Origin: Bacillus sp. AFS059628
GTDB lineage: Bacteria; Bacillota; Bacilli; Bacillales; Bacillaceae_G
Length of the DNA stretch: 52,447 nt
Reading direction: 5' to 3'
Assembly: GCF_002571225.1 (NCBI RefSeq)
Contig: NZ_NVEC01000085.1
Span: 1-52,447, forward strand
In this document: piece after piece, positions 3,522 to 20,907 of the stretch
Layout: every line of letters begins with the position of its first letter
How positions within the stretch are numbered: position 1 is the first letter of the stretch
Translations under genes and position numbers: made by a program
Notes under the pieces: model-generated
Seen by the model: only the letters and a program-made list of their open reading frames with translations
Told to the model about the DNA's origin: nothing
Databases searched by the model: none

Positions 3522-3693
3522 TCTACATTTTAAGTTCTGAATTTTCTGTTTTCAAAATAATATTTAGCACTCATTTGTATATTTTATAATAGTTTTTTGA
3601 TAAATTCACTGCTTTCGCAGAGGGTTCTTTTTTATGAAAGAAACGTCAATTTTCTTCATATATATATACAAATTGGAGAAATGGGGGAGCGCT

Positions 3694-5004
3694 ATGCGCG
3701 ATTACTTAATTAAACCACTTGTTGGTCAGCCGTATCCAATGATTTCACATGGAAAAGGTGTGTATTTGTATGATCAAAACGGAAATAAATATTTTGATGG
3801 GTCGTCAGGGGCAATTACGGCAGGTATTGGGCATGGCGTAAAGGAGATTGCGGACGTTATCAAAAAGCAAGCAGAGGAGATTGCTTTCGTTTATAGATCA
3901 CAGTTTACGAGTGAACCAGCTGAAAAATTAGCGAAGAAATTAAGCGATTTAAGTGTAGGAGATTTGAACTGGAGCTTTTTTGTGAATAGTGGTACGGAAG
4001 CAAATGAAACAGCTATGAAAATTGCAATTCAACATTTTCAAGAGCGAGGTATTCAAGGGAAACATAAAATTTTGTCACGATGGATGAGTTATCACGGTAT
4101 TACGATGGGCGCCTTATCAATGTCTGGACATCCACTGCGTAGACAACGTTTCGTATCAATTTTAGAAGATTATCCAACTATTCCAGCTCCATATTGTTTT
4201 AGATGTCCGGTGCAAAAAGTATATCCAACTTGTCAGCTTGCTTGTGCGACTGAACTAGAAAGATCAATCGAAAGAATTGGTGCAGAACATATCGCAGCTT
4301 TTATCGCTGAACCGATTATCGGAGCAGCTGGAGGCGCAGTCGTTCCGCCGAAAGAATATTATAAAGTTATTAAAGATATTTGTAGTCATTACGATATTTT
4401 ATTTATTGCTGATGAAGTAATGACTGGGCTTGGTCGTACTGGCGCATGGTTTGCGATGGAGCATTGGGGGGTAGAACCGGATATTATGACCCTTGGTAAA
4501 GGTTTAGGAGCTGGATACACACCGATGGCAGCGACGGTTGTAAGTGACCGTGTAATGGAGCCGATTTTACGGGGGTCGCGTTCTGTTATGAGTGGGCATA
4601 CGTTAAGTGCAAATCCATTATCTGCAGCAACAGCTTTAGCTGTTATTGAATATATGGAGAAACATAATCTACCTGAAAAAACAGCGGAAAAGGGAGAGTA
4701 TTTAATAAAAGGTTTACAGAAAGTTCAGCAACAATCGACAATCATTGCTGATGTGCGCGGAAAAGGTTTGCTAATTGGGGTAGAATTGCAACCGTTTACA
4801 AAGGCGTCGGAACTTATTTCAGTTGCAGCTAAAAATGGTCTTCTTTTATATCAAGCTGTTTCAGGGCAAGCAGGAAAAGAAGATAGTGCACTGCTTGTGG
4901 CACCGCCAATGACAACTACATATTCCGAGTTAGATGAATTACTTTCAATTTTTGCAAAAAGTGTAGAAGAAATGATGCAAAAAGGAGGGCATAGTATCGC
5001 ATGA
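3694..5004 (+). CDS. yodT: PLP-dependent class III aminotransferase (YodT-like), 436 aa
   Basis: Fold-type I, class III (omega/ornithine-type) aminotransferase; first gene of the yodT-S-R-Q-P operon. The PLP-phosphate region NSGTEANETAMK is at 98-109, Asp240 in DEVMTGLGRTG should contact the pyridine nitrogen, and Lys269 in TLGKGLGAGY is the likely Schiff-base lysine. The ATG at 3694 is used because GGGGGAG lies just upstream; a longer frame from 3634 adds 20 unlikely residues. It overlaps the next gene by ATGA. Given yodP and kamA it may transaminate beta-lysine or its acetyl derivative to a beta-keto acid; that substrate is inference. In B. subtilis the homologous operon is expressed in the mother cell under SigE. 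Confidence 0.88.
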   Translation: MRDYLIKPLVGQPYPMISHGKGVYLYDQNGNKYFDGSSGAITAGIGHGVKEIADVIKKQAEEIAFVYRSQFTSEPAEKLAKKLSDLSVGDLNWSFFVNSGTEANETAMKIAIQHFQERGIQGKHKILSRWMSYHGITMGALSMSGHPLRRQRFVSILEDYPTIPAPYCFRCPVQKVYPTCQLACATELERSIERIGAEHIAAFIAEPIIGAAGGAVVPPKEYYKVIKDICSHYDILFIADEVMTGLGRTGAWFAMEHWGVEPDIMTLGKGLGAGYTPMAATVVSDRVMEPILRGSRSVMSGHTLSANPLSAATALAVIEYMEKHNLPEKTAEKGEYLIKGLQKVQQQSTIIADVRGKGLLIGVELQPFTKASELISVAAKNGLLLYQAVSGQAGKEDSALLVAPPMTTTYSELDELLSIFAKSVEEMMQKGGHSIA

Positions 5005-6361: not shown

Positions 6362-7630
6362 ATGGAGCAATTAAAAAAACAAATTTGTGATTATATTGAG
6401 AGTCAAGAAGAAGAGAGCGTAAAATTTTTAAAACGATTAATTCAAGAAAAGAGCGTATCTGGTGATGAAAGTGGTGCGCAGGCAATTGTGATTGAAAAAT
6501 TGCGCGAGCTAGGTTTAGATCTTGATATTTGGGAACCTTCATTTTCTAAAATGAAAGATCACCCTTATTTTGTATCACCACGTACAAGTTTTTCGGATAG
6601 TCCGAACATTGTAGCGACTCTTAAAGGAAGTGGCGACGGGAAATCTATGATATTAAATGGACATATTGATGTTGTACCAGAAGGAGATGTGGACCAGTGG
6701 GACCATCATCCCTATAGTGGTGAGAGAATAGGAAATCGTATATACGGCCGCGGGACAACAGATATGAAAGGCGGCAATGTCGCGCTAATGCTTGCGATGG
6801 AAGCAATTATTGAATCTCGTATTGAATTAAAAGGAGATATTTATTTTCAAAGTGTAATAGAAGAAGAAAGCGGCGGAGCAGGAACATTAGCTACGATATT
6901 ACGAGGATATAAAGCGGATGGTGTCATTATTCCAGAGCCGACAAATATGAAGTTTTTCCCGAAACAACAAGGTTCTATGTGGTTTCGTCTACATGTAAAA
7001 GGGAAAGCAGCACACGGTGGAACACGTTATGAAGGAGTAAGTGCAATTGAAAAAAGCATGTTTGTTGTAGAGCATTTAAGAAAGCTGGAAGCGAAGAGAA
7101 ATGACCGAATTACAGACCCGTTATTTAAAGGAATCCCAATTCCAATTCCAATTAATATTGGGAAAATAGAAGGCGGGAGCTGGCCAAGTTCTGTTCCTGA
7201 TTCGTTAATTTTAGAAGGAAGATGCGGTATTGCGCCGAATGAGACTATAGAGGCAGCAAAAGAAGAATTCGAGAATTGGATCGCTGAATTAAATGATGTG
7301 GACAATTGGTTTGTTGAAAATCCTGTAGAAGTAGAATGGTTTGGAGCGAGATGGGTGCCTGGTGAACTAGAAGAAAATCATGAGTTAATTACAACACTCG
7401 GACATAACTTTGTTGAAATCGAAGGAAAAGAACCAATTATTGAAGCATCGCCGTGGGGGACTGATGGAGGTTTATTTACACAAATCGCAGGTGTACCAAC
7501 GATAGTATTTGGCCCAGGAGAAACGAAAGTCGCACATTATCCAAATGAATATATAGAAGTTGATAAAATGATAGCTGCCGCAAAAATTATTGCATGTACA
7601 TTACTAGATTGGTGTGAGGTGAAAAAATGA
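6362..7630 (+). CDS. yodQ: M20-family deacylase (YodQ-like), 422 aa
   Basis: Zinc-dependent amidohydrolase of the ArgE/DapE/ACY1 peptidase M20 family. Metal ligands and catalytic residues appear in NGHIDVVPEGD (His101, Asp103), RGTTDMKGG (Asp134) and IEEESGG (Glu167-Glu168). The length suits a two-domain enzyme with a dimerisation insert at about 200-310. It follows yodR by 15 bases with AGGGGAGATG upstream and ends in an ATGA overlap with yodP. With an acetyltransferase next door, removing an acetyl group from an acetylated lysine derivative is reasonable but unproven. B. subtilis yodQ is the positional homologue. Confidence 0.87.
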   Translation: MEQLKKQICDYIESQEEESVKFLKRLIQEKSVSGDESGAQAIVIEKLRELGLDLDIWEPSFSKMKDHPYFVSPRTSFSDSPNIVATLKGSGDGKSMILNGHIDVVPEGDVDQWDHHPYSGERIGNRIYGRGTTDMKGGNVALMLAMEAIIESRIELKGDIYFQSVIEEESGGAGTLATILRGYKADGVIIPEPTNMKFFPKQQGSMWFRLHVKGKAAHGGTRYEGVSAIEKSMFVVEHLRKLEAKRNDRITDPLFKGIPIPIPINIGKIEGGSWPSSVPDSLILEGRCGIAPNETIEAAKEEFENWIAELNDVDNWFVENPVEVEWFGARWVPGELEENHELITTLGHNFVEIEGKEPIIEASPWGTDGGLFTQIAGVPTIVFGPGETKVAHYPNEYIEVDKMIAAAKIIACTLLDWCEVKK

Positions 7631-9972: not shown

Positions 9973-10113
9973 TGTTTGCACCAATAAAAGAGCGTTTACA
10001 TATATAAAAAGTAATGAATATGATAGTATGTATGGATTTCATGCAGTGCTCAAAAAAATTTTTTCGCTTATGTAATAGGGTTCGCCGTACATTTACTTAT
10101 CAATAAAGTAAAG

Positions 10114-10130
10114 TTGGCATAACTATTGCT
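10114..10130 (+). promoter_or_regulatory. Sigma-54 (-24/-12) promoter of kamA
   Basis: TTGGCATAACTATTGCT matches the sigma-54 consensus, with GG at 10116-10117 and GC at 10128-10129 separated by exactly 10 bases. Transcription would start near 10141, 27 bases before the kamA ATG. The adjacent gene encodes a sigma-54 activator. About 75-95 bases upstream lies a symmetric A7T6 tract (10051-10064) flanked by GC dinucleotides that might be the activator site; that part is weak. Confidence 0.78.
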
Positions 10131-10167
10131 TATATAAAGGATGAGCGTATAAAAAGGGGGAATAGCA

Positions 10168-11589
10168 ATGTTACATGATGTATACAAACCAAATCGTCAC
10201 TGGAAGGATATCGAATTATGGAAAGATGTTACTGAAGAGCAATGGAATGATTGGGTTTGGCAATTAACGAATACGATCAAAACGTTAGATGACTTAAAGA
10301 AAGTGATTAACTTAACACCTGATGAAGAAGAGGGCGTTAAAATTTCAACGAAAACGATCCCGTTAAATATTACACCGTACTATGCTTGGTTAATGAATCC
10401 TGATGACCCACGCTGTCCGATTCGGATGCAATCTGTACCGATTTCGGAAGAGTTATATAAAACAAAATACGATTTAGAAGATCCGCTTCATGAAGATGAA
10501 GATTCACCAGTTCCAGGATTAACACATCGTTATCCTGACCGCGTATTATTCTTAGTGACAAATCAATGTTCGATGTATTGTCGTTACTGTACGCGCCGTC
10601 GTTTTAGTGGACAAATTGGAATGGGTGTACCGAAGAAACAATTAGATGATGCAATTGCTTACATTCGTGAAACACCACAAGTACGAGATGTATTAATCTC
10701 CGGTGGTGATGGTCTTCTAATTAACGATAAAATTTTAGAATATGTATTAAAAAATTTACGTGAGATTCCGCACGTTGAGATTATTCGTATCGGAACGAGA
10801 GCACCAGTGGTATTCCCGCAGCGTATTACAGAAAACTTATGTAACATTATTAAAAAATATCATCCAGTATGGTTAAATACACATTTCAATACATCTATTG
10901 AAATTACTGAAGAATCGAAAAAGGCATGTGAAATGTTAGCGAATGCTGGTGTTCCAGTCGGAAACCAAGCAGTAATTTTAGCTGGTATTAACGACAGCGT
11001 TCCAATTATGAAAAAATTAATGCATGACTTAGTAAAAATCCGTGTACGTCCATACTACATTTATCAATGTGACTTATCTGAAGGCATTGGTCATTTCCGT
11101 GCACCAGTTTCTAAAGGTCTTGAAATTATCGAAGGTTTACGCGGACATACGTCTGGTTATGCAGTTCCGACATTCGTTGTTGATGCACCAGGAGGGGGCG
11201 GTAAAATTGCGCTTCAGCCAAACTATTTAATCTCGCAAAGTGCAGATAAAGTTGTGCTTCGTAACTTTGAAGGTGTTATTACAACGTATCCAGAGCCAGA
11301 GAGCTACATTCCAGGGAGAGCAGAAGGATACTTTAAAGAAATCTATCCGAACTACGAAGAAAAACGTTCAGATGTTGGTATTGCGGGTCTTATGAGCGAT
11401 AAGAAATTTAATCTTGTTCCAGACGATTTACAGCGTATGAACCGTCGTAAAGACTATGAAGATAATGAAACGCATGCAACATTAAAAGATAAACGTGATA
11501 AGCGCGACCAATTGAAAGATAAAAAATATCAAGCACAAATGGCTAAAATAGAAGAAAACGACAAAAAAACTGAGGGTGATGCAGTATGA
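10168..11589 (+). CDS. kamA: L-lysine 2,3-aminomutase, 473 aa
   Basis: Radical-SAM, PLP-dependent enzyme converting L-lysine to L-beta-lysine. The [4Fe-4S] motif is Cys134-x3-Cys138-x2-Cys141 (CSMYCRYC), followed by the SAM-binding ISGGDGLL. PGGGGK holds the PLP lysine (Lys346). The length agrees with B. subtilis KamA (about 471). RBS AAAAAGGGGG lies 7-8 bases before the ATG. The gene is preceded by a sigma-54 promoter and overlaps the yokU start (ATGA). With YodP it can give N6-acetyl-beta-lysine. The charged C-terminal tail (about 420-473) is typical of Bacillus forms. Confidence 0.96.
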   Translation: MLHDVYKPNRHWKDIELWKDVTEEQWNDWVWQLTNTIKTLDDLKKVINLTPDEEEGVKISTKTIPLNITPYYAWLMNPDDPRCPIRMQSVPISEELYKTKYDLEDPLHEDEDSPVPGLTHRYPDRVLFLVTNQCSMYCRYCTRRRFSGQIGMGVPKKQLDDAIAYIRETPQVRDVLISGGDGLLINDKILEYVLKNLREIPHVEIIRIGTRAPVVFPQRITENLCNIIKKYHPVWLNTHFNTSIEITEESKKACEMLANAGVPVGNQAVILAGINDSVPIMKKLMHDLVKIRVRPYYIYQCDLSEGIGHFRAPVSKGLEIIEGLRGHTSGYAVPTFVVDAPGGGGKIALQPNYLISQSADKVVLRNFEGVITTYPEPESYIPGRAEGYFKEIYPNYEEKRSDVGIAGLMSDKKFNLVPDDLQRMNRRKDYEDNETHATLKDKRDKRDQLKDKKYQAQMAKIEENDKKTEGDAV

Positions 11590-11858
11590 ATTGTATGTGG
11601 TGTGACAGTACAGAAGCAAAAGAAAGCTTAAATACTGTATATTGGGAATTACCAGATGGTACGAAAGCCATTGAAATCCAAGAGACACCATGCATTTCTT
11701 GTTCCTCATGTGGTATGGACTATCAATCAGATCATACAGTGAAAGAAATAGAAGATCAATTGTTTCTAATTTATACGAAAGATTTACCAAAACAACTAAC
11801 ATATGAAGAATTAATGGGAAGACCACGTCTATTAAAAAGAAATTATTTCGACTTTTAA
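11586..11858 (+). CDS. yokU: YokU family zinc-ribbon-like protein, 90 aa
   Basis: Small protein of the YokU family, normally found just after kamA in Bacillus. Two CxxC pairs (CMWC near residues 3-6 and CSSC about 39-42) suggest one zinc site. The C-terminal half contains the conserved LTYEELMGRPRLLKRNYF. Its ATG overlaps the kamA stop (ATGA), so it is co-transcribed under the sigma-54 promoter and translationally coupled. The linkage implies a helper role for lysine 2,3-aminomutase, perhaps maturation; that is inference. A terminator follows directly. Confidence 0.85.
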   Translation: MNCMWCDSTEAKESLNTVYWELPDGTKAIEIQETPCISCSSCGMDYQSDHTVKEIEDQLFLIYTKDLPKQLTYEELMGRPRLLKRNYFDF

Positions 11859-11883
11859 CCAGCTTTTATGCTGGTTTTTTTCT
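11857..11883 (+). terminator. Terminator of kamA-yokU
   Basis: A 7-bp stem AACCAGC / GCTGGTT, loop TTTTAT, then a run of T residues. It overlaps the yokU stop codon. Confidence 0.88.
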
Positions 11884-11930
11884 TTTTTGCCTTGTATAAT
11901 GTACCCAAGTTAGAAAGGTAGGGAATATTT

Positions 11931-12146
11931 TTGAAAAAGACATTTTACCACTATATGATGAAGCATCGCGCAGCTTTATTTAGTAATGAAATATCGAATT
12001 TAGCAGAGGCAATGTATGATGATTTAAGCTTTCCGAAGCAATCTGAAGATTACGATGAAATTAGTTCATACTTAGAGTTAAGTGGAATGCTAGAAAGTAT
12101 GTCTATATTTGATGAAGCGTGGGATTTGTACATACAAGAGAGATAA
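11931..12146 (+). CDS. yozE: YozE family protein (SAM-like fold), 71 aa
   Basis: Matches the YozE/DUF1250 family, a compact helical SAM-like domain of unknown function. Recognisable elements are FYHYMMKHR at the start, LSFPKQSEDYDEISSYLEL in the middle and FDEAWDLYI at the end. It begins with TTG (11931) after AAAGGTAGGG; no ATG is suitable. A TATAAT box about 30 bases upstream (TTGTATAATG) suggests its own SigA promoter. Position after yokU agrees with B. subtilis. A terminator follows. Confidence 0.88.
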   Translation: MKKTFYHYMMKHRAALFSNEISNLAEAMYDDLSFPKQSEDYDEISSYLELSGMLESMSIFDEAWDLYIQER

Positions 12147-12172
12147 AAACTATACGGGATTTTTTTAATGTG

Positions 12173-12199
12173 AAGCTAGTTTATTTGCTAGCTTTTTTT
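12173..12199 (+). terminator. Terminator after yozE
   Basis: Stem AAGCTAG / CTAGCTT with an 8-base loop and a T tract. Confidence 0.82.
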
Positions 12200-12336
12200 A
12201 TATTGTAAATAAATTTTCATATGGTGATATTTTTTATTGAAAAAATTTATGAATATACGCTTCTGTGATAAGCGTTTTTATGTAGGTTGCATATACTGTT
12301 ATCAAAATCACGACGTCAAAAAAAGGAGAGATATAG

Positions 12337-12999
12337 ATGGCAAGGAAAAAGCAACCTAAATATAACGTAGGGGACATAGTCGTGATTACGCTATATGGAA
12401 CCGTTGGTAAAATCACAAATATGAAGGTTTTAGATGGAGTTTACGTATACGAAGTCAATAATCACGATGGGTTTTACGTAGAGCAAACGTTGCAGCACGT
12501 TTCAGAGCAAGATATGAAAAAAGGTGAAACTGAGTGGATTGAATTAAATTATCATTTCACATTTGGTGATCTCGTGCAAGTAACAGGATACGATAAAGAT
12601 GTGTTTCGAATTGTTGGTTTTCGTACAGAAGTATGGAGATATAAAAATGACGCATGGGAAGATACAATATACGAATTGTCACGAATTACGGATGGTGAAT
12701 GGTTAGAAGCGGATGAGTCAGATTTAACGTTACTTGCCAATGCTCAAACGGCAAATGCAATTTTGAAGAAAATGAAACAAGATAAAGCTGGTATGAATAA
12801 ATTAGATTTAGGAAAATTAAAGTCAATTAACAACTCGAAAAAAGTGAGTGTTAAGACAAATCGTCAAGAAATCATTGATGGATTACTTGATATTTATAAC
12901 GATTATCAATTGTTATTTGATACATTTAAAGATGAAGAATACAAAATTGTTATGGATGTTGTTCATAATTATTTAGTTAAATTGACAGAGAAAAAATAG
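12337..12999 (+). CDS. yodN: YodN-like protein, 220 aa
   Basis: Protein of unknown function, identified mainly by position (between yozE and yozD, as in B. subtilis) and by its length of 220 residues. The N-terminus holds two beta-rich segments of SH3/KOW type (YNVGDIVVITLYGTVGKITN and FTFGDLVQVTGYDKDVFRIVG). A mixed linker and a helical C-terminus follow (about 165-218, IIDGLLDIYNDYQLLFDTF). No signal peptide or enzyme motif is present. RBS AAAGGAGAG lies eight bases before the ATG. The stop is four bases from the end of a convergent minus-strand gene with no terminator between them. Confidence 0.7.
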   Translation: MARKKQPKYNVGDIVVITLYGTVGKITNMKVLDGVYVYEVNNHDGFYVEQTLQHVSEQDMKKGETEWIELNYHFTFGDLVQVTGYDKDVFRIVGFRTEVWRYKNDAWEDTIYELSRITDGEWLEADESDLTLLANAQTANAILKKMKQDKAGMNKLDLGKLKSINNSKKVSVKTNRQEIIDGLLDIYNDYQLLFDTFKDEEYKIVMDVVHNYLVKLTEKK

Positions 13000-13003
13000 T
13001 TAA

Positions 13004-13171
13004 CTAGAAAGAGAGAATAAATTGAACAACAACATATGCAGTATAAGGTATGCCTACAATTATTAAAAAAATAAAAAGCCATTTAATAAGAGAGTCTGCC
13101 CATTGATCTTCATGCATGAACTCTTCTTTTGTTTGTCCTACTTCTTGTTTTACCTCGTATTGGTATTCCAT
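13004..13171 (-). CDS. Small single-pass membrane protein, 55 aa
   Basis: A short protein with a charged N-terminus (MEYQYEVKQEVGQTKEEF) and one hydrophobic helix at about residues 30-52 (KWLFIFLIIVGIPYTAYVVV). The start is chosen because AAAGGGGGA lies six bases upstream on the minus strand; an 18-codon extension lacks support. It faces yodN tail to tail and is divergent from yozD. The family is not recognised. It may be a membrane anchor or a small stress/spore protein. Confidence 0.7.
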   Translation of the reverse strand: MEYQYEVKQEVGQTKEEFMHEDQWADSLIKWLFIFLIIVGIPYTAYVVVQFILSF

Positions 13172-13321
13172 AATTAAATCCCCCTTTTTGATAGCTTGTA
13201 CTACCATCGTATGCATCTCGTCCAAAGGATATAACCTATAAAAAAAGAAAAACTATTTTTCTAATCTCATATACATATTTTTGAGATTTTTTCATAAAAC
13301 AGAAATAAAGGAGTGATGCTC

Positions 13322-13501
13322 ATGAAGGAAATTGAAGTCGTAATTGATACGGAAGAGATTGCGGAGTTTTTTTATGAGCAACTAATTGAAAGAGGATACG
13401 TCCCAAAAAGAGAAGAAATTGAAGATCTCGCAGATATTACATTCGAGTATTTATTAGAGAAATGTATGATTGATGAAGTGTTTGATGAAGAAGATGAGTG
13501 A
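13322..13501 (+). CDS. yozD: YozD family protein, 59 aa
   Basis: Very acidic small protein (start MKEIEVVIDTEEIAEFF, end DEVFDEEDE) matching YozD in length and position. AAGGAG lies eight bases before this ATG; the in-frame GTG/ATG codons just upstream sit on top of the Shine-Dalgarno sequence. Function unknown. Its own terminator follows, so it is a single-gene unit in the yodN-yozD-yodM order. Confidence 0.82.
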   Translation: MKEIEVVIDTEEIAEFFYEQLIERGYVPKREEIEDLADITFEYLLEKCMIDEVFDEEDE

Positions 13502-13505
13502 AAGT

Positions 13506-13532
13506 AACGACGGGCTTAACTCGTCGTTTTTT
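13506..13532 (+). terminator. Terminator of yozD
   Basis: Stem AACGACG / CGTCGTT with a 9-base loop and six T residues. Confidence 0.85.
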
Positions 13533-13611
13533 ACTCTTTACAAACTTGTCACAAATCTAGCCAGCAATAGTTGGTATAATTAAAAGAAAATTTTACTCAA
13601 GAGGTGAAGGG

Positions 13612-13794
13612 ATGTTCAAAAAAATTATTGATTCTTTATTAGGAAAGAAAAAGTATCGTTCGTATTCTAGTAGTGATTATCGCCATAGAGGTCGCTCTTA
13701 TTCAAGTAGCGATTATAAGCGACGTTCATCTGGTTATGGGCATCATCATTATAAAAGAAAACGTAAAAGCCGTAGCTTCTTTTCAAGTAGCTGA
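13612..13794 (+). CDS. Small Arg/Ser/Tyr-rich basic protein, 60 aa, coupled to a kinase gene
   Basis: After an amphipathic start (MFKKIIDSLLGKKK) the protein is almost wholly Ser, Tyr, Arg, Lys, His and Gly, with SYSSSDY repeated twice, each copy followed by basic residues, then SSGYGHHHYKRKRK and SFFSSS. GAGGTGAAGGG precedes the ATG. The stop overlaps the start of a Hanks-type kinase (TGATG), so the two are made together. The density of Ser/Tyr in basic context suggests a phosphorylation substrate, like the SKR repeats of the spore coat protein CotB with CotH. Nucleic-acid or polyanion binding is the alternative. Family not recognised. Confidence 0.75.
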   Translation: MFKKIIDSLLGKKKYRSYSSSDYRHRGRSYSSSDYKRRSSGYGHHHYKRKRKSRSFFSSS

Positions 13795-14615
13795 TGAAAT
13801 GGCGTCGTATACTAGCTTTATTTGATAGACCACTGCGAAAAAATACAATCGTTGCAGAACGTTATAAAATTGAATCAGTAATTGGAATGGGCAGTTATGG
13901 GGTTACATATGTCGTTAATGACTTACAAATAAATAGATATAAAGTCTTAAAACAATTAAGACAAAGTAAACAAAGATATGAATCTGGGAGAAAATCATTT
14001 GAACAAGAGAAAATGATTTTACAAACATTAAATCATCATGCAATTCCTAGTTTATATGATCAATTCGTATGGGAGAAAAAAAGCTTTTTTGTAATGGAAT
14101 ATATGCCCGGTAAAAATTTCGAAGATTATATTTTTTTAGATGGGCATGTATATACAGAACGTGAAGTTTTAAAAATTTTATACGAAATATTAGAAATTGT
14201 ATCGGTGTTTCATAGTGAAGGTATTATTCACCGAGATTTACGCATTCCAAACATATTAATGAAAGAAAATGAAATTAGTATTATTGACTTTGGATTGGCT
14301 AAATTGAAGGGTGAGGGTGATGAACGAGCTACGACTTATGAAGGTGAACAAGCTTTGATGCGAGAAGTTCACTTTCGTAGCGATTTTTATGCGCTTGGTC
14401 ATTTCTCATTATTTTTATTATATGCAGGCTATGAATCTATTGAAAAACATGAGAAGCCATGGCATGACGAATTAACTTTGGAAAAATATAACCGTGAAAT
14501 GCTTATGCGCATGTTACAAATAAAAACACCGTACTATGAAAATGTACAAGATTTAAAAAAAGATGTAGCTTTTGCTTTAGAAAGGATGGAGGATCCATGT
14601 TTCAAAAGTTTTTAG
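13794..14615 (+). CDS. Hanks-type Ser/Thr protein kinase, 273 aa
   Basis: Soluble eukaryotic-like kinase comprising only the catalytic domain. The glycine loop is IGMGSYGVTY (30-39), the ATP-anchoring lysine Lys53 (KVLKQL), the catalytic loop HRDLRIPN with Asp148 and Asn153, and the DFG is at 165-167. The usual HRDLKPEN lysine is replaced by Arg150. No transmembrane segment or PASTA domain follows, unlike PrkC. It starts inside the stop of the basic 60-aa protein and overlaps spo0M by 19 bases. The cluster suggests it modifies its small neighbour and/or Spo0M; that is inference. Confidence 0.88.
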   Translation: MKWRRILALFDRPLRKNTIVAERYKIESVIGMGSYGVTYVVNDLQINRYKVLKQLRQSKQRYESGRKSFEQEKMILQTLNHHAIPSLYDQFVWEKKSFFVMEYMPGKNFEDYIFLDGHVYTEREVLKILYEILEIVSVFHSEGIIHRDLRIPNILMKENEISIIDFGLAKLKGEGDERATTYEGEQALMREVHFRSDFYALGHFSLFLLYAGYESIEKHEKPWHDELTLEKYNREMLMRMLQIKTPYYENVQDLKKDVAFALERMEDPCFKSF

Positions 14616-15352
14616 CAAGCGTTGGTATTGGTAATGCAAAAGTAGATACAGTTCTTGAAAAAGATGAGTATATTGTTGGAGAAGAGATACACGGGAAGGT
14701 TCATATAACTGGTGGTTCAGTTAGCCAACAAATTGAAAGCATTTACTTAACGTTATCAACATCGTATGTACGAGAAGTGGATGATAAAAAGGTAACAACA
14801 ACATATGATTTAGAGCGAGTTCGTTTAACAGAACCTTTTTCTGTTGAGCTGAATGAAAAAAAAGAAATTCCATTTTCATTTAACATGCCAGTTGAAACGC
14901 CACTTACTCTTGGAATGAAAACAGTTTGGGTGCATACAGGCCTTGATATTAAACGCAGTATAGATCCAAGTGATCGTGATTACATTCAAGTGTTGCCCAA
15001 TGCACTATTAAATAGTGTGTTAGAGAGTGTAAATCAATTAGGTTTTAAAGCGCGTCATATAGAATGTGAAGAATTACCGTATCGCTTACGTAAGCAAGTT
15101 CCATTTGCACAAGAATTTGAGTTTATTCCTGTTTCCGGAGAGTATTATGGGAAATTAGATGAACTAGAATTATTAATCTTACCAAGCGCTTATGATCGCC
15201 TAGAGATTATTATGGAAGTAGACAGAAAATCTCGCGGTTTAGCAGGTTTATTTGCAGAAGCACTTGATCTTGACGAGAAAGTGATTCGCTTTACAGTAAC
15301 GAATGAAGATATACCAGTAATGAAAGAAAAAATTAACAATTATATTTTTTAA
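14597..15352 (+). CDS. spo0M: Sporulation-control protein Spo0M, 251 aa
   Basis: Arrestin-like beta-sandwich protein that influences sporulation and cytoskeleton-related processes. MFQKFLASVGIGNAKVDTVL at the start, VGEEIHGKVHITGGSVSQQI and the second-domain EFEFIPVSGEYYG are characteristic, and the length is close to B. subtilis Spo0M (about 258). GGATGGAGG lies just upstream within the end of the kinase gene; the 19-base overlap implies coupling. In B. subtilis spo0M is elsewhere, so the link to this kinase appears specific to this lineage. Confidence 0.92.
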   Translation: MFQKFLASVGIGNAKVDTVLEKDEYIVGEEIHGKVHITGGSVSQQIESIYLTLSTSYVREVDDKKVTTTYDLERVRLTEPFSVELNEKKEIPFSFNMPVETPLTLGMKTVWVHTGLDIKRSIDPSDRDYIQVLPNALLNSVLESVNQLGFKARHIECEELPYRLRKQVPFAQEFEFIPVSGEYYGKLDELELLILPSAYDRLEIIMEVDRKSRGLAGLFAEALDLDEKVIRFTVTNEDIPVMKEKINNYIF

Positions 15353-15355
15353 TAA

Positions 15356-15417
15356 ACTATGCATAAAAAAGAAATGGAGAGGAAAACTAAAACAACCGCT
15401 CCATTTTTTTGCATAGT
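15356..15417 (+). terminator. Long nested terminator after spo0M
   Basis: Outer arms ACTATGCA / TGCATAGT and inner arms AAATGGAG / CTCCATTT enclose a 19-base loop, with an A-rich left and T7 right flank. It ends the kinase-spo0M unit and runs into the 5' leader of yodM. Confidence 0.75.
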
Positions 15418-15429
15418 GAGGTTATGTAT

Positions 15430-16065
15430 GTGAAACGATATCGACATTTATACTTGTTAAGTTTTACGCTACTCATTTGTTTTGTCGTATTATCACTTTC
15501 GTATCATACCACTTGTATTGAGAAATTTGACAATATAGTCGCACATTTTATTCAAAGTTTTAGAAACGACTACTTGACAGCCTACTTTACTTGGGTGTCT
15601 TTTATCGGTTCCAAAAGAATATATTTTCCGTTACTCATCATTCTTGTAATGTATTTTCTCGTTAGAAAAAAGTTGCTTAGTGCATTACTTCTAACAATTA
15701 ATTATTATGGATCTCGTTATTTAAACAGTATGCTTAAACTATGGTACGAACGAGCAAGACCTGATGTAACGCAGCTTGTTACGGCAACTGGATATAGTTT
15801 TCCGAGCGGTCATACGATGAATGCTACTGCTTTTTTAGGATTTATTGCATACGTCACAATTACAGAAGAACATATTACATTGCATAAAAAATTGTTGATT
15901 ATTTTTATAGCGAGCTTTGTTGTATTATCTATTTCAGTTAGCCGAATATATCTTGGCGTCCACTATCCATCTGACATATTAGCAGGATGGGCAGCTGGCG
16001 GTAGCTGGCTCGTTTTATGTGTTATATTTCATAAAGCGTTTATTAAAAAAGAACCTATGTCATAA
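15430..16065 (+). CDS. yodM: PAP2-family membrane phosphatase (YodM-like), 211 aa
   Basis: Membrane-embedded type 2 phosphatidic acid phosphatase, probably acting on lipid phosphates or undecaprenyl pyrophosphate outside the membrane. The three PAP2 motifs are present: KLWYERARPD, FPSGHT, and SRIYLGVHYPSD. About six hydrophobic helices are visible. The GTG at 15430 is preferred because GAGGT lies seven bases upstream; ATG 15424 is too close to it and TTG 15409 lies in the preceding terminator. Its 3' end overlaps the convergent CDF gene by 11 bases. Confidence 0.87.
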   Translation: MKRYRHLYLLSFTLLICFVVLSLSYHTTCIEKFDNIVAHFIQSFRNDYLTAYFTWVSFIGSKRIYFPLLIILVMYFLVRKKLLSALLLTINYYGSRYLNSMLKLWYERARPDVTQLVTATGYSFPSGHTMNATAFLGFIAYVTITEEHITLHKKLLIIFIASFVVLSISVSRIYLGVHYPSDILAGWAAGGSWLVLCVIFHKAFIKKEPMS

Positions 16066-16078
16066 TAGGTTCTTTTTC
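16046..16078. terminator. Bidirectional terminator shared by yodM and the CDF gene
   Basis: Stem AAAAAGAACCTAT / ATAGGTTCTTTTT with a short loop. It lies inside the overlapping 3' ends of the two convergent coding regions, so it can stop both. Confidence 0.85.
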
Positions 16079-16936
16079 CATTGGCTCAACATGAATGTGT
16101 GCATGATAAATGCCAAACTTTTTCCGGAGCATAGCCTCGATGTTGTCAGTAATACAATGACTTTCACCAACATCCATACTAGCATCTACCTCGATTGTAA
16201 TATCAACGTACGTTTGATTTCCGTACATACGAGCGCGAATATCCACGATATTTTCCACGCCACCTATATGTTCAATAGCATCAGCGTACTCTTCCATCTT
16301 ATCTGGATCGATTCCATCCGTTAACATATGAGAAGCTTCTACGAAAATCTCCCATGCAGTTTTACAAATAATAAGACCGACAATTAAAGCGGCAATAGGG
16401 TCTAAAATAGGCATTTGGAACTGCGAACCGACAATACCTACTACTGTACCAATACTTACGAGAGCATCTGATAAATTATCCTTTGCAGCGGCTTCTAATG
16501 ATTTGCTTTTTGTGCGCGCCGCAACCTTTTTCGTATATAAATACACACAGTACATAACGACAGCAGAAAATAAAGCTACCCATGCAGCAAGTACATTAGG
16601 TGCAGCTTGTTTTGGATTTAAAAAAGATTGAATGGCACTAACAACAACCTCTAATCCGACCGTTGCCATAATAAAAGAAGCAACAAGTGATGCAATTTGT
16701 TCAGCGCGCGAATGCCCATAAGGATGATCTGGGTCACGAGGTTTACGAGAGATTTTTAGACCGATTAATATCGCTAAAGAAGCACCGATATCCGTTAAGT
16801 TATTTAAACCGTCAGCACGTAATGCGCTAGAGAGGGTAATATAACTGATGATGATTTTCATAGAGGATAAAAATATGTAGGCCATAATGCTGACAATCGC
16901 ACCTTTATCAGCTTCTTTATGAGAAAGAGTATCCAT
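16055..16936 (-). CDS. Cation diffusion facilitator family transporter, 293 aa
   Basis: Proton-coupled divalent metal exporter (Zn/Co/Fe/Mn type). Several transmembrane helices fill residues 10-205, with metal-site motifs in DGLNNLTDIGASL, HPYGHSRAEQ and DNLSDALVSIGTVVG. The C-terminal cytoplasmic ferredoxin-like domain includes DIRARMYGNQTYVDITIEVD. The ATG lies nine bases after AAAGGTGA; an upstream in-frame GTG is only two bases from it. Metal specificity cannot be told. Monocistronic, convergent with yodM. Confidence 0.9.
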   Translation of the reverse strand: MDTLSHKEADKGAIVSIMAYIFLSSMKIIISYITLSSALRADGLNNLTDIGASLAILIGLKISRKPRDPDHPYGHSRAEQIASLVASFIMATVGLEVVVSAIQSFLNPKQAAPNVLAAWVALFSAVVMYCVYLYTKKVAARTKSKSLEAAAKDNLSDALVSIGTVVGIVGSQFQMPILDPIAALIVGLIICKTAWEIFVEASHMLTDGIDPDKMEEYADAIEHIGGVENIVDIRARMYGNQTYVDITIEVDASMDVGESHCITDNIEAMLRKKFGIYHAHIHVEPMEKEPIMT

Positions 16937-17193
16937 TTTAATCACTCACCTTTCTACAAGGAATTTCTTTCTATAAATAGAGTACCAAACGGAACTCGTG
17001 TGGGTCTATACAAACATTGTTGACGTTTTTTAGCTTTTTAAGAAGGGGATAACAAAGTTTCGTGAAGGAAAAATATGTTGTAAAGTGCAAAGTAAGGGTG
17101 CGAACTCGATTTTGATTGAGGGGATAGGTGAAAGGATACATGTATTATGATGAATCCGTATACTACATTGCTCAAAGGTGATTGGGCAAAATA

Positions 17194-17227
17194 AAAACCC
17201 TCTAAAAAATATTTTTCAGAGGGTTTT
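17194..17227. terminator. Terminator of the thioredoxin-like gene
   Basis: A 10-bp stem AAAACCCTCT / AGAGGGTTTT, A/T-rich on both sides. It is positioned to end the minus-strand thioredoxin-like gene just before its stop-distal flank. Confidence 0.85.
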
Positions 17228-17231
17228 CATC

Positions 17232-17546
17232 TTAGTATGCTTCTAAAAACTCAGTAACTTGCTCTTCAGTTTTTGCATTAGCACTATGTAAGTGGCCTAG
17301 CTTCTCTCCATTTTGATATACAAGTAAACTTGGAATACCCATTACTTGATACTCTTCAGCGATACTTGGAAACTCATCTTTATTAATAGAATACCATTCA
17401 AACTTATTGAACTCTTCCATTACATCTCCGATAAAGTTGTCCATACGCACACAATCTGGGCACCATGTAGTAAAGAACTTAACAACTACTGGCTCCTCGC
17501 TTGCGATGATGTCTTTGAATTCCTGTTCAGATTTGATTTCTTTCAT
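17232..17546 (-). CDS. Thioredoxin family protein, CPDC active site, 104 aa
   Basis: Cytosolic thioredoxin-fold protein. The redox motif is WCPDC (FTTWCPDCVRM); the cis-proline loop is GIPSLLVYQNG. Length 104 matches single-domain thioredoxins. The Pro-Asp in the CxxC and the acidic, Lys-poor surface differ from TrxA (CGPC), so it is probably a specialised reductase rather than the housekeeping one. GAGAGGAGTC lies six bases before the start. It is the last conserved gene before the phage-derived region. Confidence 0.9.
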   Translation of the reverse strand: MKEIKSEQEFKDIIASEEPVVVKFFTTWCPDCVRMDNFIGDVMEEFNKFEWYSINKDEFPSIAEEYQVMGIPSLLVYQNGEKLGHLHSANAKTEEQVTEFLEAY

Positions 17547-17625
17547 GTTTTTGACTCCTCTCAATGTCACACGGATAAGCTAGTATTTTTATGCAAAATC
17601 CGCGATTGCAAACATTTTGCAAACA

Positions 17626-18265
17626 TTAGTGTTTTTGAAGAAAGTTATTTGCAAAATCTTCGACTGCTTTTTCTTGTAGGTCTGGTTCGACATAGGCGTA
17701 GGTGCTCAGTATGATACCTACGCTGTTAAGTCCTAAACGTCCGCTTTGTGATCTTTGGATGTATAACTTAGATACTAGAAACGAATATTAGGAACCTCAC
17801 TTTTCTTTATAAGCTTTTTCATGAGCTGTGTCAAACTTCTGAAATTGCAGGGGTTACTATTATAGGGTGGGCAAACCAAATCCAAATTATTATATCCATC
17901 GCTATACCGTTCTTTATCTTCATTTATTTTTTGAAGATGTTCTTGAAGAGCATGTAAGGTGATTTCAGGCAAAACCATTAATCTTTTTCCTTTTAGGTCC
18001 ATGAAATTGTTTTGTGACCTGAGAGAGGTAACGATAAACCGATAGAGTTCTTCTCTCCAAATCAATATCCTTCCATTGAAGCTTTAAGATTTCGCCTTTA
18101 CGCATGCCACATGTAATAGCCAATAGATATGCAACATAGTATCTGCTATCTTTTGTACGATCTAAAAAACAAAGGACATCTTCTTCTGACCAAGTATTTA
18201 CTGTTTTTTCTTTACCTTTAGGAGGGCTTACTACATCAGCTACATTCTTTTGATATCCAGCGAAT
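17626..18265 (-). pseudogene. Tyrosine recombinase (phage integrase) pseudogene
   Basis: Minus-strand frames together reproduce the catalytic half of a phage integrase. About 18262-18000 gives TWSEEDVLCFLDR and AITCGMRKGEILKLQWKDID, the latter containing the first catalytic Arg. 17775-18065 gives LMVLPEITLHALQEHLQKI and ends at NIRF with a stop. 17626-17740 gives RLGLNSVGIILSTYAYVEP with the C-terminal Tyr, and QEKAVEDFANNF. At least two frameshifts or deletions separate them; the HDLRHT box and the N-terminal DNA-binding domain are missing. It is dead as an enzyme. Confidence 0.85.
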
Positions 18266-18513
18266 GTATAGCGGAGAAAAAGCTTTTAAGAAAATGCAAA
18301 ATTACCGCAACCCACATTTCAATTACATGGGTATGAGAGTAAACGTAGCTGGCGTGTGGGGTTTATTTGTAATAAATCGGAAAAAATAATCTATTCGTTT
18401 TGTTCGATGGAGAAATTAAGAAGCATAATTGCCATCCCTATTGGGAAATTGCTTACTACGGTGATGAGGGTAATGTTGTAAGAAGCTACCAGAAGGAAGA
18501 GTATGCGATATAA
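18264..18513 (+). pseudogene. Frameshifted phage-type gene, unknown function
   Basis: ATG 18264 opens a 41-residue frame (MYSGEKAFKKMQNYRNPHFN, ending GVWGLFVINRKK) that stops at 18389. A second frame then runs FDGEIKKHNCHPYWEIAYYG and ends SYQKEEYAI at 18513. The two read as one small protein broken by a frameshift. Its start overlaps the edge of the integrase fragment on the other strand. I recognise the style of small Bacillus phage proteins but not the family. Confidence 0.45.
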
Positions 18514-18547
18514 AAAAAGGACTAGCGGTTGCACCCGCTGTCCTTTA
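18513..18547 (+). terminator. Hairpin after the frameshifted phage gene
   Basis: Two stacked stems, AAAGGAC/GTCCTTT and AGCGG/CCGCT. It is preceded by an A run and followed by few T residues, so it suits minus-strand termination at least as well as plus-strand. Confidence 0.6.
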
Positions 18548-18548
18548 A

Positions 18549-19094
18549 TAGGAGAAAAAGTATTCTTGTTTAGAACTACGCATAAACAGAAAATCTGCTT
18601 GTAATTAGTTTTACCCTCAATGTACGTGCTTATACAAAAAAGAGATAAGTAAAAAATACTTATCCCCAAGAAAGGAAATCCCAAGCACCAAAATGGCTCG
18701 TATTGGTCTGCAGGTTCAAAAGTAGTATATGTAGAACGAAACAATCTCATGCAAAAAGCAGACAACGCTTTTTGTTGTCTGCCAGTGGGTCGAATGAGTT
18801 AGCTAATTGTGATAAATTGCATTCCCATTACAAGAAGAGTGAAGCTGCTAGTTCAAACAGCTTGTTGGTATTATTTTCGATATTAAAAAAAATATACAGG
18901 AAAAGCAGATAAGTTAAAAAACCTACCTGCTTCTGCTGTAACAAATGAAAGAAGTATTAGCCGTGGATACGGCGGCTTGGAAATAGTATGTATTTTTATT
19001 TAAAAAATATTCAAGGGTTGAAGAAACATAGAATGTTTGATAAATGGTATCCATGAAATTAATCAGCTAATCAGTAAAACAAAAGTGAAAAACA
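18549..19094. other. Non-coding stretch with hairpins, phage debris
   Basis: No intact gene is visible. Two strong hairpins are present: AGATAAGTA...TACTTATC (18642-18664) and GCAGACAAC...GTTGTCTGC (18758-18782), each preceded by an A run. A short plus-strand coding-like remnant near 18690-18750 reads NGSYWSAGSKVVYVER. A weaker hairpin lies at 18901-18935. The composition fits decayed phage genes. Confidence 0.5.
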
Positions 19095-19307
19095 ATGAGC
19101 AAATATAATAATAAAAAGGTAAAACTAGATGACCATGTATTCGATAGTAAAGCAGAAGCGAATTATTATGCTGGATTAAAAATACGCCAAGCTACAGAGG
19201 GAATTTCAAGTTTCGAATTGCAACCAAGATCCATTTTGCAGCCAGCATTTATAAAGAGCGGAAAAAGATATCAGGCAATTACATATTGGATGAGTACGAC
19301 AAATTAA
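19095..19307 (+). pseudogene. Truncated DUF1064 phage protein
   Basis: The first 62 residues match the DUF1064 family of phage proteins (a small nuclease-like fold): YNNKKVKLDDHVFDSKAEANYY, then FELQPRSILQPAF and KRYQAITY. The family is normally about twice as long. After ITY the frame runs into WMSTTN and stops, while another frame carries LDEYDKLKCEKKN, consistent with a frameshift plus deletion. No good Shine-Dalgarno sequence is seen. Confidence 0.75.
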
Positions 19308-20072
19308 AATGTGAAAAGAAAAACTAAAATAAGTAAATTTATGTATATTTTTAATGCATGTTCAGTTTGAAAAAATCTTTCTTTTGCAAAACAAAGCAGT
19401 TAGTTAATAAAACTAACTGCTCGTTGTACAAAAGAAACGCTCCGCTTACACAATAGATTGTAACCTAAAGTTGAAAAATAGTATGAACAGGGTTAAAAAT
19501 GTGATTTAGAAATGAAAGGAAACATAATAAAAAAAGAGAAGCGCTTAATTAGGACACTCCTCTTAATGCCAATATACAATAACTATTCCATTATAATGTA
19601 TAAGCATAAAATATTTAACAATTAGTTATGTGGTAAAAATTTCATTTTGTTTTAGGTTAAAATGAAAAAAGAGCACTTACAGTGAACTGAACGTCTAGGT
19701 TAGAAATATATGATTTGAAAAAGAAATAAGAACAAAATTTTATTATTTGCTCAATATAAAAGAGGAGTTAGCCCAGTTCAACTGCTCAGTACAGGGGTAA
19801 TGATCTAGATGCATAGATATTATATGCCAAGTTATTGACTTTATTCGAGGAGAAATAAAGAATATGTATTTATTTGGAAAATATAGTTAGATAATTTCTT
19901 TAAGTAACAAGAGCAATAATGAAATAAAAGAGCAGCTAGCAAAAGCAAACTGCACCAATCATGGAATATGGTTCGAAATGGGGTGTCTATATTATTGACG
20001 GAATATTGAGTTTTAGTCAGGGGCACCTAGAGGTTTTCTTTTTTACTTAATCCATATCTCGCAAACAAAATA
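19308..20072. other. Non-coding stretch with nested palindromes
   Basis: No convincing gene. A nested palindrome at 19381-19434 has outer arms CTTTTG/CAAAAG around AGCAGTTAGTT-aataa-AACTAACTGCT. Further A-run-plus-hairpin elements start near 19533, 19665, 19758 and 19925. Apart from these I see only AT-rich sequence with many stops. Confidence 0.5.
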
Positions 20073-20706: not shown

Positions 20707-20907
20707 ATGGGATGTAATAATAATTTTGGACATTCCCGAGATTGTAATAGATTTTGGGATGATTTAGTATTTTGCGGATGCGGTCGTAGACGCAGAAGAA
20801 ACGATTTTAACGACTGTCATTGTAGACGTGACTGCGATTGTGATGAGTGTCGTCGCAGACGTAATCATGACCGTGATCATGATCATGATGATCGTCGAGA
20901 TTGGTAA
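20707..20907 (+). CDS. Cys/Arg/His/Asp-rich small protein, 66 aa
   Basis: Strongly biased protein: nine Cys, many Arg and Asp, and an end rich in His-Asp (RRRRNHDRDHDHDDRRDW). CGCGRRRRR and CHCRRDCDCDECRRRR hold closely spaced Cys pairs that could bind metal or form disulphides. RBS GAGGAGGG is nine bases before the ATG, and a strong terminator follows, so it is a complete gene amid phage debris. Such composition is common in Bacillus spore coat or exosporium proteins; metal sequestration is the alternative. Both are inference. Family not recognised. Confidence 0.75.
   Translation: MGCNNNFGHSRDCNRFWDDLVFCGCGRRRRRNDFNDCHCRRDCDCDECRRRRNHDRDHDHDDRRDW

What the first reader, a model, noticed from the sequence alone, without database searches (positions are those of the whole stretch)
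13612..15352. Coupled cluster: Ser/Tyr-repeat basic peptide, Hanks-type kinase and Spo0M
A 60-aa protein made almost only of Ser, Tyr, Arg, Lys and His, with SYSSSDY repeats, overlaps a complete soluble Ser/Thr kinase by TGATG. The kinase in turn overlaps spo0M by 19 bases. The arrangement suggests a kinase made together with its substrate and a sporulation regulator. CotH and CotB are a known precedent for phosphorylation of Ser-rich basic repeats in spores, but this kinase is of a different fold. In B. subtilis spo0M is elsewhere, so the grouping looks lineage-specific. I know of no description of it.
Basis: partly seen in the sequence, partly recalled or inferred. Interest (0 to 1): 0.75.

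Follow-up and report, generated by a model that had tools for sequence, protein, structure and literature searches.

The report
Microprotein paired with YbdM/PrkD kinase
A tiny, unannotated protein made mostly of serine, tyrosine and positively charged residues sits beside the same bacterial signalling kinase in three groups of spore-forming bacteria, so it is probably the kinase's natural partner, most likely its target, although no phosphorylation has been shown.

Summary
In detail: a 60-aa Ser/Tyr/basic ORF, a Hanks-type kinase overlapping it by TGATG, and spo0M overlapping the kinase by 19 bases. The kinase is very probably YbdM/PrkD (BC2258 in B. cereus), already described. New is the small protein: no Pfam, NCBIfam or PHROGs match; lowest dN/dS of four genes in 4 of 5 comparisons; a relative beside the kinase in Cytobacillus spongiae (same three-gene order, same chromosomal site) and in Mesobacillus foraminis (131 bp away, convergent, apparently mis-framed in RefSeq). 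In the window and in 400 kb of each of those two records it is the most S/Y/R/K/H-rich small ORF. In the window lineage the kinase start lacks a Shine-Dalgarno sequence, so its translation probably depends on the peptide. Spo0M is the loose member: absent from the Mesobacillus record, without an annotated kinase neighbour in 10 of 11 places inspected, and found in non-sporulators. Best reading: a dedicated YbdM/PrkD partner, most likely a multi-site phosphorylation target, working like CotG/CotB with CotH but with an unrelated kinase. Phosphorylation, sporulation timing and a Spo0M link are untested. 'Lineage-specific' is wrong.

The parts
13506..13528 (+). Intrinsic-terminator-like hairpin after yozD, upstream boundary of the unit
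   Evidence: pattern scan (4 such sites found, 2.5 expected in shuffles), fold of 13500-13545 -12.0 kcal/mol
13572..13580 (+). Extended -10-like promoter element TGNTATAAT, kept in L002-L004
   Evidence: sequence, alignment; not listed by the sigma-70 scan; no experimental support
13612..13794 (+). 60-aa Ser/Tyr/basic microprotein with two SYSSSDY repeats; coding, strongly constrained; relatives in Cytobacillus and Mesobacillus
13792..13796 (+). TGATG stop/start overlap; kinase start has no Shine-Dalgarno (-0.6 kcal/mol, weakest of 22 starts scored)
13794..14615 (+). Soluble Hanks-type kinase, YbdM/PrkD orthologue (inference)
   Evidence: Pfam PF00069; S162 as in B. anthracis PrkD; no transmembrane segment (max 19-residue hydropathy 1.11)
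13950..13952 (+). Kinase K53 (ATP-binding lysine)
   Evidence: invariant in 6 of 6 rows
14229..14252 (+). Catalytic loop HRDLRIPN (Arg in place of the usual Ser/Thr-kinase Lys; that comparison is recalled)
   Evidence: H146, D148, R150, P152, N153 invariant in 6 of 6 rows; M. foraminis has HSD for HRD
14277..14294 (+). S162 (position of the published PrkD autophosphorylation site) followed by DFG (165-167)
   Evidence: PMC4238996 passages
14597..15352 (+). Spo0M, arrestin-clan protein, overlaps kinase by 19 bases, own strong Shine-Dalgarno
   Evidence: PF07070 9e-77; PDB 5cl2 relative E 1.7e-56
15356..15419 (.). Long hairpin with T run after spo0M, probable downstream terminator
   Evidence: fold of 15350-15425 -23.9 kcal/mol; not listed by the terminator scan, whose loop limit is 8
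13322..13501 (+). YozD, conserved upstream flank
   Evidence: PF14162 1.5e-30
12337..12999 (+). YodN, conserved upstream flank
   Evidence: NF058646 1.2e-83; 50% identical in C. spongiae
15424..16065 (+). PAP2 phosphatase, downstream flank; a relative flanks the pair in M. foraminis
   Evidence: PF01569 2.8e-21; 36% identity over 192 aligned positions

Best explanation
The 60-aa protein founds a family of disordered, strongly basic Ser/Tyr-rich microproteins that are dedicated partners of the soluble kinase YbdM/PrkD. Most likely they are its cognate multi-site substrate. The upstream ORF is translated first, and in the window lineage the kinase, which lacks its own ribosome-binding site, is translated by coupling, so both are made together. 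The kinase then phosphorylates Ser, and perhaps Tyr, in the SYSSSDY and C-terminal RSFFSS stretches, turning a polycation (+15) towards neutral or negative charge and so releasing or re-directing it from an anionic partner (nucleic acid, membrane or cell-envelope polymer). Shown: coding status, selection, conserved linkage in three lineages, no recognisable Shine-Dalgarno at the kinase start in the window lineage, intact catalytic residues. From the literature: the kinase is active on Ser/Thr/Tyr and on a basic model protein. Inferred: disorder, that the peptide is the substrate, the charge switch, the anionic partner, the time of action. Spo0M lies in the same apparent transcription unit but is not a fixed part of the pair.
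For: Peptide next to the kinase in 6 of 6 loci examined, including C. spongiae (kinase 37% identical) and M. foraminis (36%; order changed, 131 bp away). The top S/Y/R/K/H-rich small ORF in 400 kb of each of these two records is this one (1 of 1560 and 1 of 1816 ORFs). Profile searches give it as the only match at E <= 10 in the whole record (C. spongiae E 0.162 with the window-lineage profile; M. foraminis E 0.355 with A3). dN/dS of the peptide is the lowest of four genes in 4 of 5 sequence pairs, and window against L003 dN is 0.055 (kinase 0.183, Spo0M 0.116, PAP2 0.092). Ser 11-16 and Tyr 4-7 but no Thr and no Glu in the five sequences counted. Kinase start without Shine-Dalgarno in 4 of 4 window-lineage loci. 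Literature passages: PrkD autophosphorylates on Ser162 plus several Thr and Tyr (PMC4238996) and takes myelin basic protein as artificial substrate (PMC6213207 table); YbdM made alone in E. coli phosphorylates CodY, and the signal is abolished by S215A (PMC12583987), so the peptide is not needed for catalysis, which favours substrate over obligate activator.
Against: No phosphorylation data for the peptide. The profile E-values (0.16, 0.36) are not significant alone and gain weight only from position; the window-lineage profile did not find the M. foraminis peptide, and the A3 match there runs just past the stop. The peptide evolves more slowly than the kinase, which a simple substrate role does not predict; between L003 and L004 Spo0M has the lower dN/dS (0.060 against 0.131, on few changes). 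In M. foraminis the two genes are convergent, so joint translation is not general; the kinase has a good Shine-Dalgarno there and in C. spongiae. Published substrates of the kinase (CodY; AbrB and Pyk; DegS, recalled) do not resemble the peptide. Low-complexity basic proteins could arise by convergence. Only three lineages could be reached.
Confidence: 0.5

Rival explanations
1. The peptide is a targeting or activating cofactor of the kinase, not (mainly) a substrate: its short hydrophobic/basic N-terminus and polybasic tail hold the kinase at DNA or an anionic membrane, as the basic juxtamembrane segment of YabT binds DNA to activate that kinase.
For: Hydrophobic residues at positions 2, 5, 6 and 9 in MFKKIIDSLL / MLRKLLKHLL / MFKKILKKIQ; strong net charge; peptide more conserved than the kinase; hydrophobic moment of the M. 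foraminis N-terminus reached by 0.7% of shuffles; YabT precedent (PMC3708118, PMC6333020, abstracts in the search listing).
Against: YbdM made alone is active in vitro (PMC12583987 passages). The hydrophobic moment of the window N-terminus is reached by 39% and that of C. spongiae by 16% of 5000 shuffles. The conserved Ser/Tyr stretches are not explained.
Confidence: 0.25
2. The peptide is an independent small structural or nucleic-acid-binding protein (for example of the spore coat) that only shares a neighbourhood with the kinase.
For: Composition like the Ser/Lys/Arg repeat regions of CotG and CotB (PMC7821199 passages); in M. foraminis it reads in the direction of PAP2, 58 bp behind it, not of the kinase; no interaction data.
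Against: Linkage to the kinase kept in three lineages although the order changed in one and Spo0M is not there.
Confidence: 0.17
3. The three proteins form a kinase / phospho-tail / arrestin chain: the kinase writes phosphates on the peptide and the arrestin-fold Spo0M reads them.
For: Spo0M belongs to the arrestin clan (PMC2515105 passages; Arrestin_C matches below the curated cut-off); three-gene order with overlap in the window lineage, same order in Cytobacillus.
Against: No Spo0M match in the M. foraminis record (chromosome not searched); no annotated kinase neighbour in 10 of 11 Spo0M neighbourhoods; [quoted passage not shown]
Confidence: 0.05

Closest known systems
YbdM/PrkD soluble Hanks-type kinase (B. 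cereus BC2258; B. anthracis PrkD)
   Same: Single-domain soluble kinase; PMC12583987 (passages) counts two Hanks kinases in B. cereus, one orthologous to YbdM; the published PrkD autophosphorylation site Ser162 is Ser162 here
   Different: No difference found, but the identification is by inference: no sequence of BC2258 or PrkD was at hand. The peptide gene is not mentioned in the passages seen
CotH kinase with CotB/CotG (SKR repeats) in the B. subtilis spore coat
   Same: Kinase gene clustered with genes for Ser-rich basic repeat proteins; many Ser and a few Tyr phosphorylated (PMC7821199 passages)
   Different: CotH has an atypical kinase fold distantly related to Fam20C; here PF00069. Here 60 aa and two repeats, against 19 repeats in CotG. 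No spore data here
YabT (B. subtilis Hanks kinase activated by DNA through a basic segment)
   Same: Bacillus Hanks kinase linked to a basic segment
   Different: The basic segment is inside YabT, which is membrane-anchored (abstracts); here it is a separate protein
Spo0M (PDB 5cl2), arrestin clan
   Same: The third gene is a clear Spo0M
   Different: In 10 of 11 records inspected Spo0M has no annotated kinase neighbour; B. subtilis spo0M lies elsewhere (recalled)

Membership tests
YbdM/PrkD kinase | Soluble single Hanks kinase domain without PASTA or transmembrane segment | tested here: met
   PF00069 3.9e-30, no PASTA match; max 19-residue hydropathy 1.11
YbdM/PrkD kinase | Catalytic Lys, Glu, HxD, Asn, DFG | tested here: met
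   K53, E72, H146, D148, N153, D165-G167 invariant in 6 of 6 rows
YbdM/PrkD kinase | Autophosphorylated Ser162 of B. anthracis PrkD | tested here: met
   Residue 162 is Ser; site from PMC4238996 passages. Its phosphorylation was not testable
YbdM/PrkD kinase | Direct sequence match to BC2258 or PrkD | not testable with these tools
   No such sequence was at hand; the primary PrkD paper is not held
CotH-CotB-CotG phosphorylation module | Kinase of the CotH (Fam20C-like) family | tested here: not met
   No CotH model among Pfam and NCBIfam matches at E <= 1; PF00069 instead
CotH-CotB-CotG phosphorylation module | Ser-rich basic repeats encoded beside the kinase | tested here: met
   75% S/Y/R/K/H, two SYSSSDY repeats in the window lineage; the C. 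spongiae relative has only one YSSSD
CotH-CotB-CotG phosphorylation module | Repeat protein phosphorylated by the neighbouring kinase; in the spore coat | not testable with these tools
   Needs biochemistry and spore proteomics
Spo0M | PF07070 over full length | tested here: met
   E 9e-77, profile 1-212 of 213
DYRK-like kinase (published label for PrkD) | Activation-loop Tyr-x-Tyr (recalled hallmark) | tested here: not met
   Segment DFGLAKLKGEGDERATTYEGEQALMRE has one Tyr and no YxY
Kinase-phosphotail-arrestin chain | Arrestin-fold gene kept with the pair | tested here: not met
   Kept in the window lineage and C. spongiae; no match in the 551-kb M. foraminis record, whose chromosome was not searched

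The most novel reading that the evidence does not exclude
A bacterial writer/tail/reader chain in one operon: YbdM/PrkD writes a Ser/Tyr phospho-code on a disordered basic microprotein and the arrestin-fold Spo0M reads it, a prokaryotic parallel to receptor kinase, phosphorylated receptor tail and arrestin.
Probability: 0.05. Interest if true: 0.88.

Novelty: new variant of a known kind. Interest (0 to 1): 0.58.

Why it matters
[quoted passage not shown] cereus group (PMC12583987, passages). A conserved, unannotated microprotein encoded beside it gives a concrete candidate for its in vivo partner and a direct assay. It would add a Hanks-kinase counterpart to the CotH module, and it shows that an annotation gap (no listed ORF in one record, apparently a wrong frame in another) can hide a small protein family. 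Because the peptides contain Ser and Tyr but no Thr, it also offers a natural test of whether this kinase truly has dual specificity.

Tried and rejected
Rejected readings: (a) chance ORF: rejected by dN/dS, whole-codon indels, a conserved Shine-Dalgarno sequence and relatives in two other lineages. (b) Grouping specific to one lineage: rejected by C. spongiae. (c) General Spo0M-kinase linkage: a kinase is annotated beside Spo0M in 1 of 11 neighbourhoods inspected, out of 25 plasmid records with a Spo0M match (flanks 6 kb for two and 2.5 kb for nine; the PLSDB gene table is incomplete). (d) A clear amphipathic N-terminal helix: not above shuffles for the window peptide, only for M. foraminis. 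(e) An RNA element: no Rfam match in 12000-17800 at gathering scores.

Led nowhere: the genome-contig scan (1 weak unrelated locus, L001, 24% identity). Seven viral-contig scans: five returned the same three contigs (one of these, with A1, also L016, 28% identity, not examined for a peptide) and two found nothing. Kinase tblastn of plasmids matched 586 records, of which the best 40 were listed; only C. spongiae and M. foraminis among them were taken as relatives, and the 546 unlisted rank lower. Peptide tblastn of plasmids found only C. spongiae with its own query and nothing with the window peptide. Phages: 34 records, 30 listed, all under 60% identity. Megablast of window 10000-20000 against plasmids: no match. 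AlphaFold of the kinase with 4 rows: mean pLDDT 35, unusable. In B. velezensis NZ_CP094295 (circular, 89 kb) the ablA-yokU-yozE-yodN-yozD...yodL order is kept, with PAP2-like fragments and no kinase or peptide between yozD and yodL; the kinase profile found nothing in that record, but the tool warns that this search had no positive control. No B. subtilis chromosome was available, so whether ybdM there has a small neighbour is untested. Priestia plasmid hit H5 (27.6%) is a longer kinase and was not counted as a relative.

Full report
WHAT IS THERE. The three ORFs exist as described. The peptide (13612-13794) ends in TGATG, which starts the kinase (13794-14615); the last 19 bases of the kinase ORF are the first 19 of spo0M (14597-15352). 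A terminator-like hairpin lies before the unit (13506-13528) and a long hairpin with a T run after it (about 15356-15419), so the three genes look like one transcription unit. An extended -10-like element (TGNTATAAT, 13572-13580) is kept in three related loci; the sigma-70 scan did not list it, and it is no promoter test.

THE PEPTIDE IS A REAL, CONSTRAINED GENE. Three IMG/VR contigs carry the same region (L002, L003, L004). Peptide identity to the window is 97, 92 and 93%, against 91, 71 and 71% for the kinase and 92, 82 and 82% for Spo0M. Nei-Gojobori dN/dS for the peptide is 0.053 (window/L002), 0.082 (window/L003), 0.058 (window/L004), 0.089 (L002/L003) and 0.131 for the near-identical pair L003/L004, which rests on 3 changes. 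It is the lowest of four genes in 4 of these 5 pairs; for L003/L004 Spo0M is lower (0.060) and PAP2 equal. Window against L003 dN is 0.055 for the peptide, 0.183 kinase, 0.116 Spo0M, 0.092 PAP2. It matches no Pfam, NCBIfam or PHROGs family at the limits used. In the five peptides counted there are 11-16 Ser, 4-7 Tyr, no Thr and no Glu.

RELATIVES OUTSIDE THE WINDOW LINEAGE. In Cytobacillus spongiae NZ_CP089998 the order is ablB-ablA-yokU-yozE-yodN-yozD-DUF2515(-)-[unannotated 55-aa ORF]-kinase-Spo0M-yodL-deoD; the window has ablA-yokU-yodN-DUF3930(-)-yozD-peptide-kinase-spo0M-PAP2. The C. spongiae ORF (L006:5796-5963) is 50% identical to the window peptide and has a good Shine-Dalgarno sequence (-10.9). 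In Mesobacillus foraminis NZ_CP033045 a kinase 36% identical is convergent with a 62-aa ORF (L005:6932-7120, minus strand; 44% identical to the window peptide in A6) 131 bp away, next to a PAP2 gene 36% identical to the one beside the window unit. RefSeq annotates another frame there (6928-7170); that start has a weak Shine-Dalgarno (-2.7), the peptide's a strong one (-9.3). I first saw this ORF by eye and then tested it. Among all ORFs of 40-100 aa, ranked by S+Y+R+K+H, the first is this neighbour in each of three sequences: 1 of 188 in the window, 1 of 1560 in 400 kb (of 551) of M. foraminis, 1 of 1816 in 400 kb (of 690) of C. spongiae (the stretches were chosen to include the kinase). Profile searches of the whole records at E <= 10 give one match each, at the same place: E 0.162 in C. 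spongiae with a profile of window-lineage sequences only and E 0.355 in M. foraminis with a profile that also holds the C. spongiae row. Neither E-value is significant alone, and the window-lineage profile missed M. foraminis; the weight comes from the position beside the kinase. A third record, of Virgibacillus, with Spo0M but no such kinase seen, gave no match. Of the loci with a kinase of at least 36% identity that I could reach, 6 of 6 have the peptide. More distant kinases (L001 24%, L016 28%, H5 27.6%) were not counted.

A DISCRETE UNIT AT A FIXED SITE. B. velezensis NZ_CP094295 keeps ablA-yokU-yozE-yodN-yozD (the last across the start of the circular record) and, about 0.74 kb on, yodL-deoD, with only PAP2-like fragments between. 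The peptide-kinase-spo0M unit thus occupies a place that is empty in this B. subtilis-group record. The 'lineage-specific' part of the finding is wrong: the unit is shared with Cytobacillus. Spo0M is the loose member: no PF07070 match in the M. foraminis record (only this record, not the chromosome, was searched), and an annotated kinase neighbour in only 1 of 11 Spo0M neighbourhoods inspected among 25 plasmid records with a match. Spo0M also occurs in haloarchaea, Vibrio, Paracoccus and others (PMC5325327 passages), so the gene name says little about sporulation.

THE KINASE. Catalytic K53, E72, H146, D148, N153 and DFG165-167 are invariant in 6 of 6 rows. The catalytic loop reads HRDLRIPN, with Arg where most Ser/Thr kinases have Lys (recalled), and there is no APE motif. 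PMC12583987 (passages) says that B. [quoted passage not shown] PMC4238996 (passages) says that B. anthracis PrkD autophosphorylates on Ser162 and on several Thr and Tyr; residue 162 here is Ser. The identification of the window kinase as YbdM/PrkD is an inference from these points. The primary PrkD paper is not held, and its DYRK-like label found no support in a YxY motif. That the window is of the B. cereus group is likewise an inference; its species is unknown.

TRANSLATION. The kinase start has the weakest Shine-Dalgarno of 22 starts that I chose and scored in the window (-0.6 kcal/mol; next weakest -5.8; random positions have a median of -2.0, where one control start, yozD, was misplaced by 3 bases and was corrected with the same value). 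It is weak in all four window-lineage loci (-0.6 to -0.9) but good in C. spongiae (-7.1) and M. foraminis (-10.2). In the window lineage the kinase therefore probably depends on translation of the peptide.

MECHANISM. The best reading is that the peptide is the kinase's dedicated partner (I would put the pairing itself at about 0.85) and most probably its multi-site substrate (0.5). For: conserved Ser/Tyr stretches, Ser/Thr/Tyr autophosphorylation and use of myelin basic protein (PMC6213207 table) reported for PrkD, and activity of YbdM made without the peptide, which speaks against an obligate activator. Against: no phosphorylation data, no likeness to known substrates, and slower evolution than the kinase. 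The CotH-CotB-CotG module (PMC7821199 passages) is the closest working analogue; membership fails because the kinase family differs.

LITERATURE ON THE PEPTIDE. A search of the library for four peptide fragments gave one unrelated plant paper. Searches on Spo0M with kinase (20 of 23 papers listed; 5 of 5), YodN with germination (no paper), locus tags (8 papers, one relevant) and YbdM (13 of 14 listed) showed nothing in titles or abstract openings that describes this cluster; only the papers cited here were opened, and of those I saw passages. Subscription papers are mostly not held, so this does not show that the peptide is undescribed.

Noticed in passing
window 20707-20907 (+): A 66-aa ORF very rich in Cys, Arg, Asp and His with no Pfam match; possibly another small structural protein.
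   Followed up: no
L005:6928-7170 (-): RefSeq CDS WP_162990425.1 appears to be a wrong-frame call over the peptide gene of M. foraminis.
   Followed up: yes
L002 and L003 about 3600-4200 (and the L004 contig): In all three IMG/VR contigs only residues 25 onward of YodN match, with other genes abutting it in L002 and L003, which suggests a prophage or element boundary inside or next to yodN.
   Followed up: no
L080:1-919 (B. velezensis NZ_CP094295): Between yozD and yodL there are PAP2-like pieces in two frames and no annotated CDS.
   Followed up: partly
NZ_CP089998 (C. spongiae, W02): Four places match Spo0M in one record, two of them with stop codons inside.
   Followed up: no
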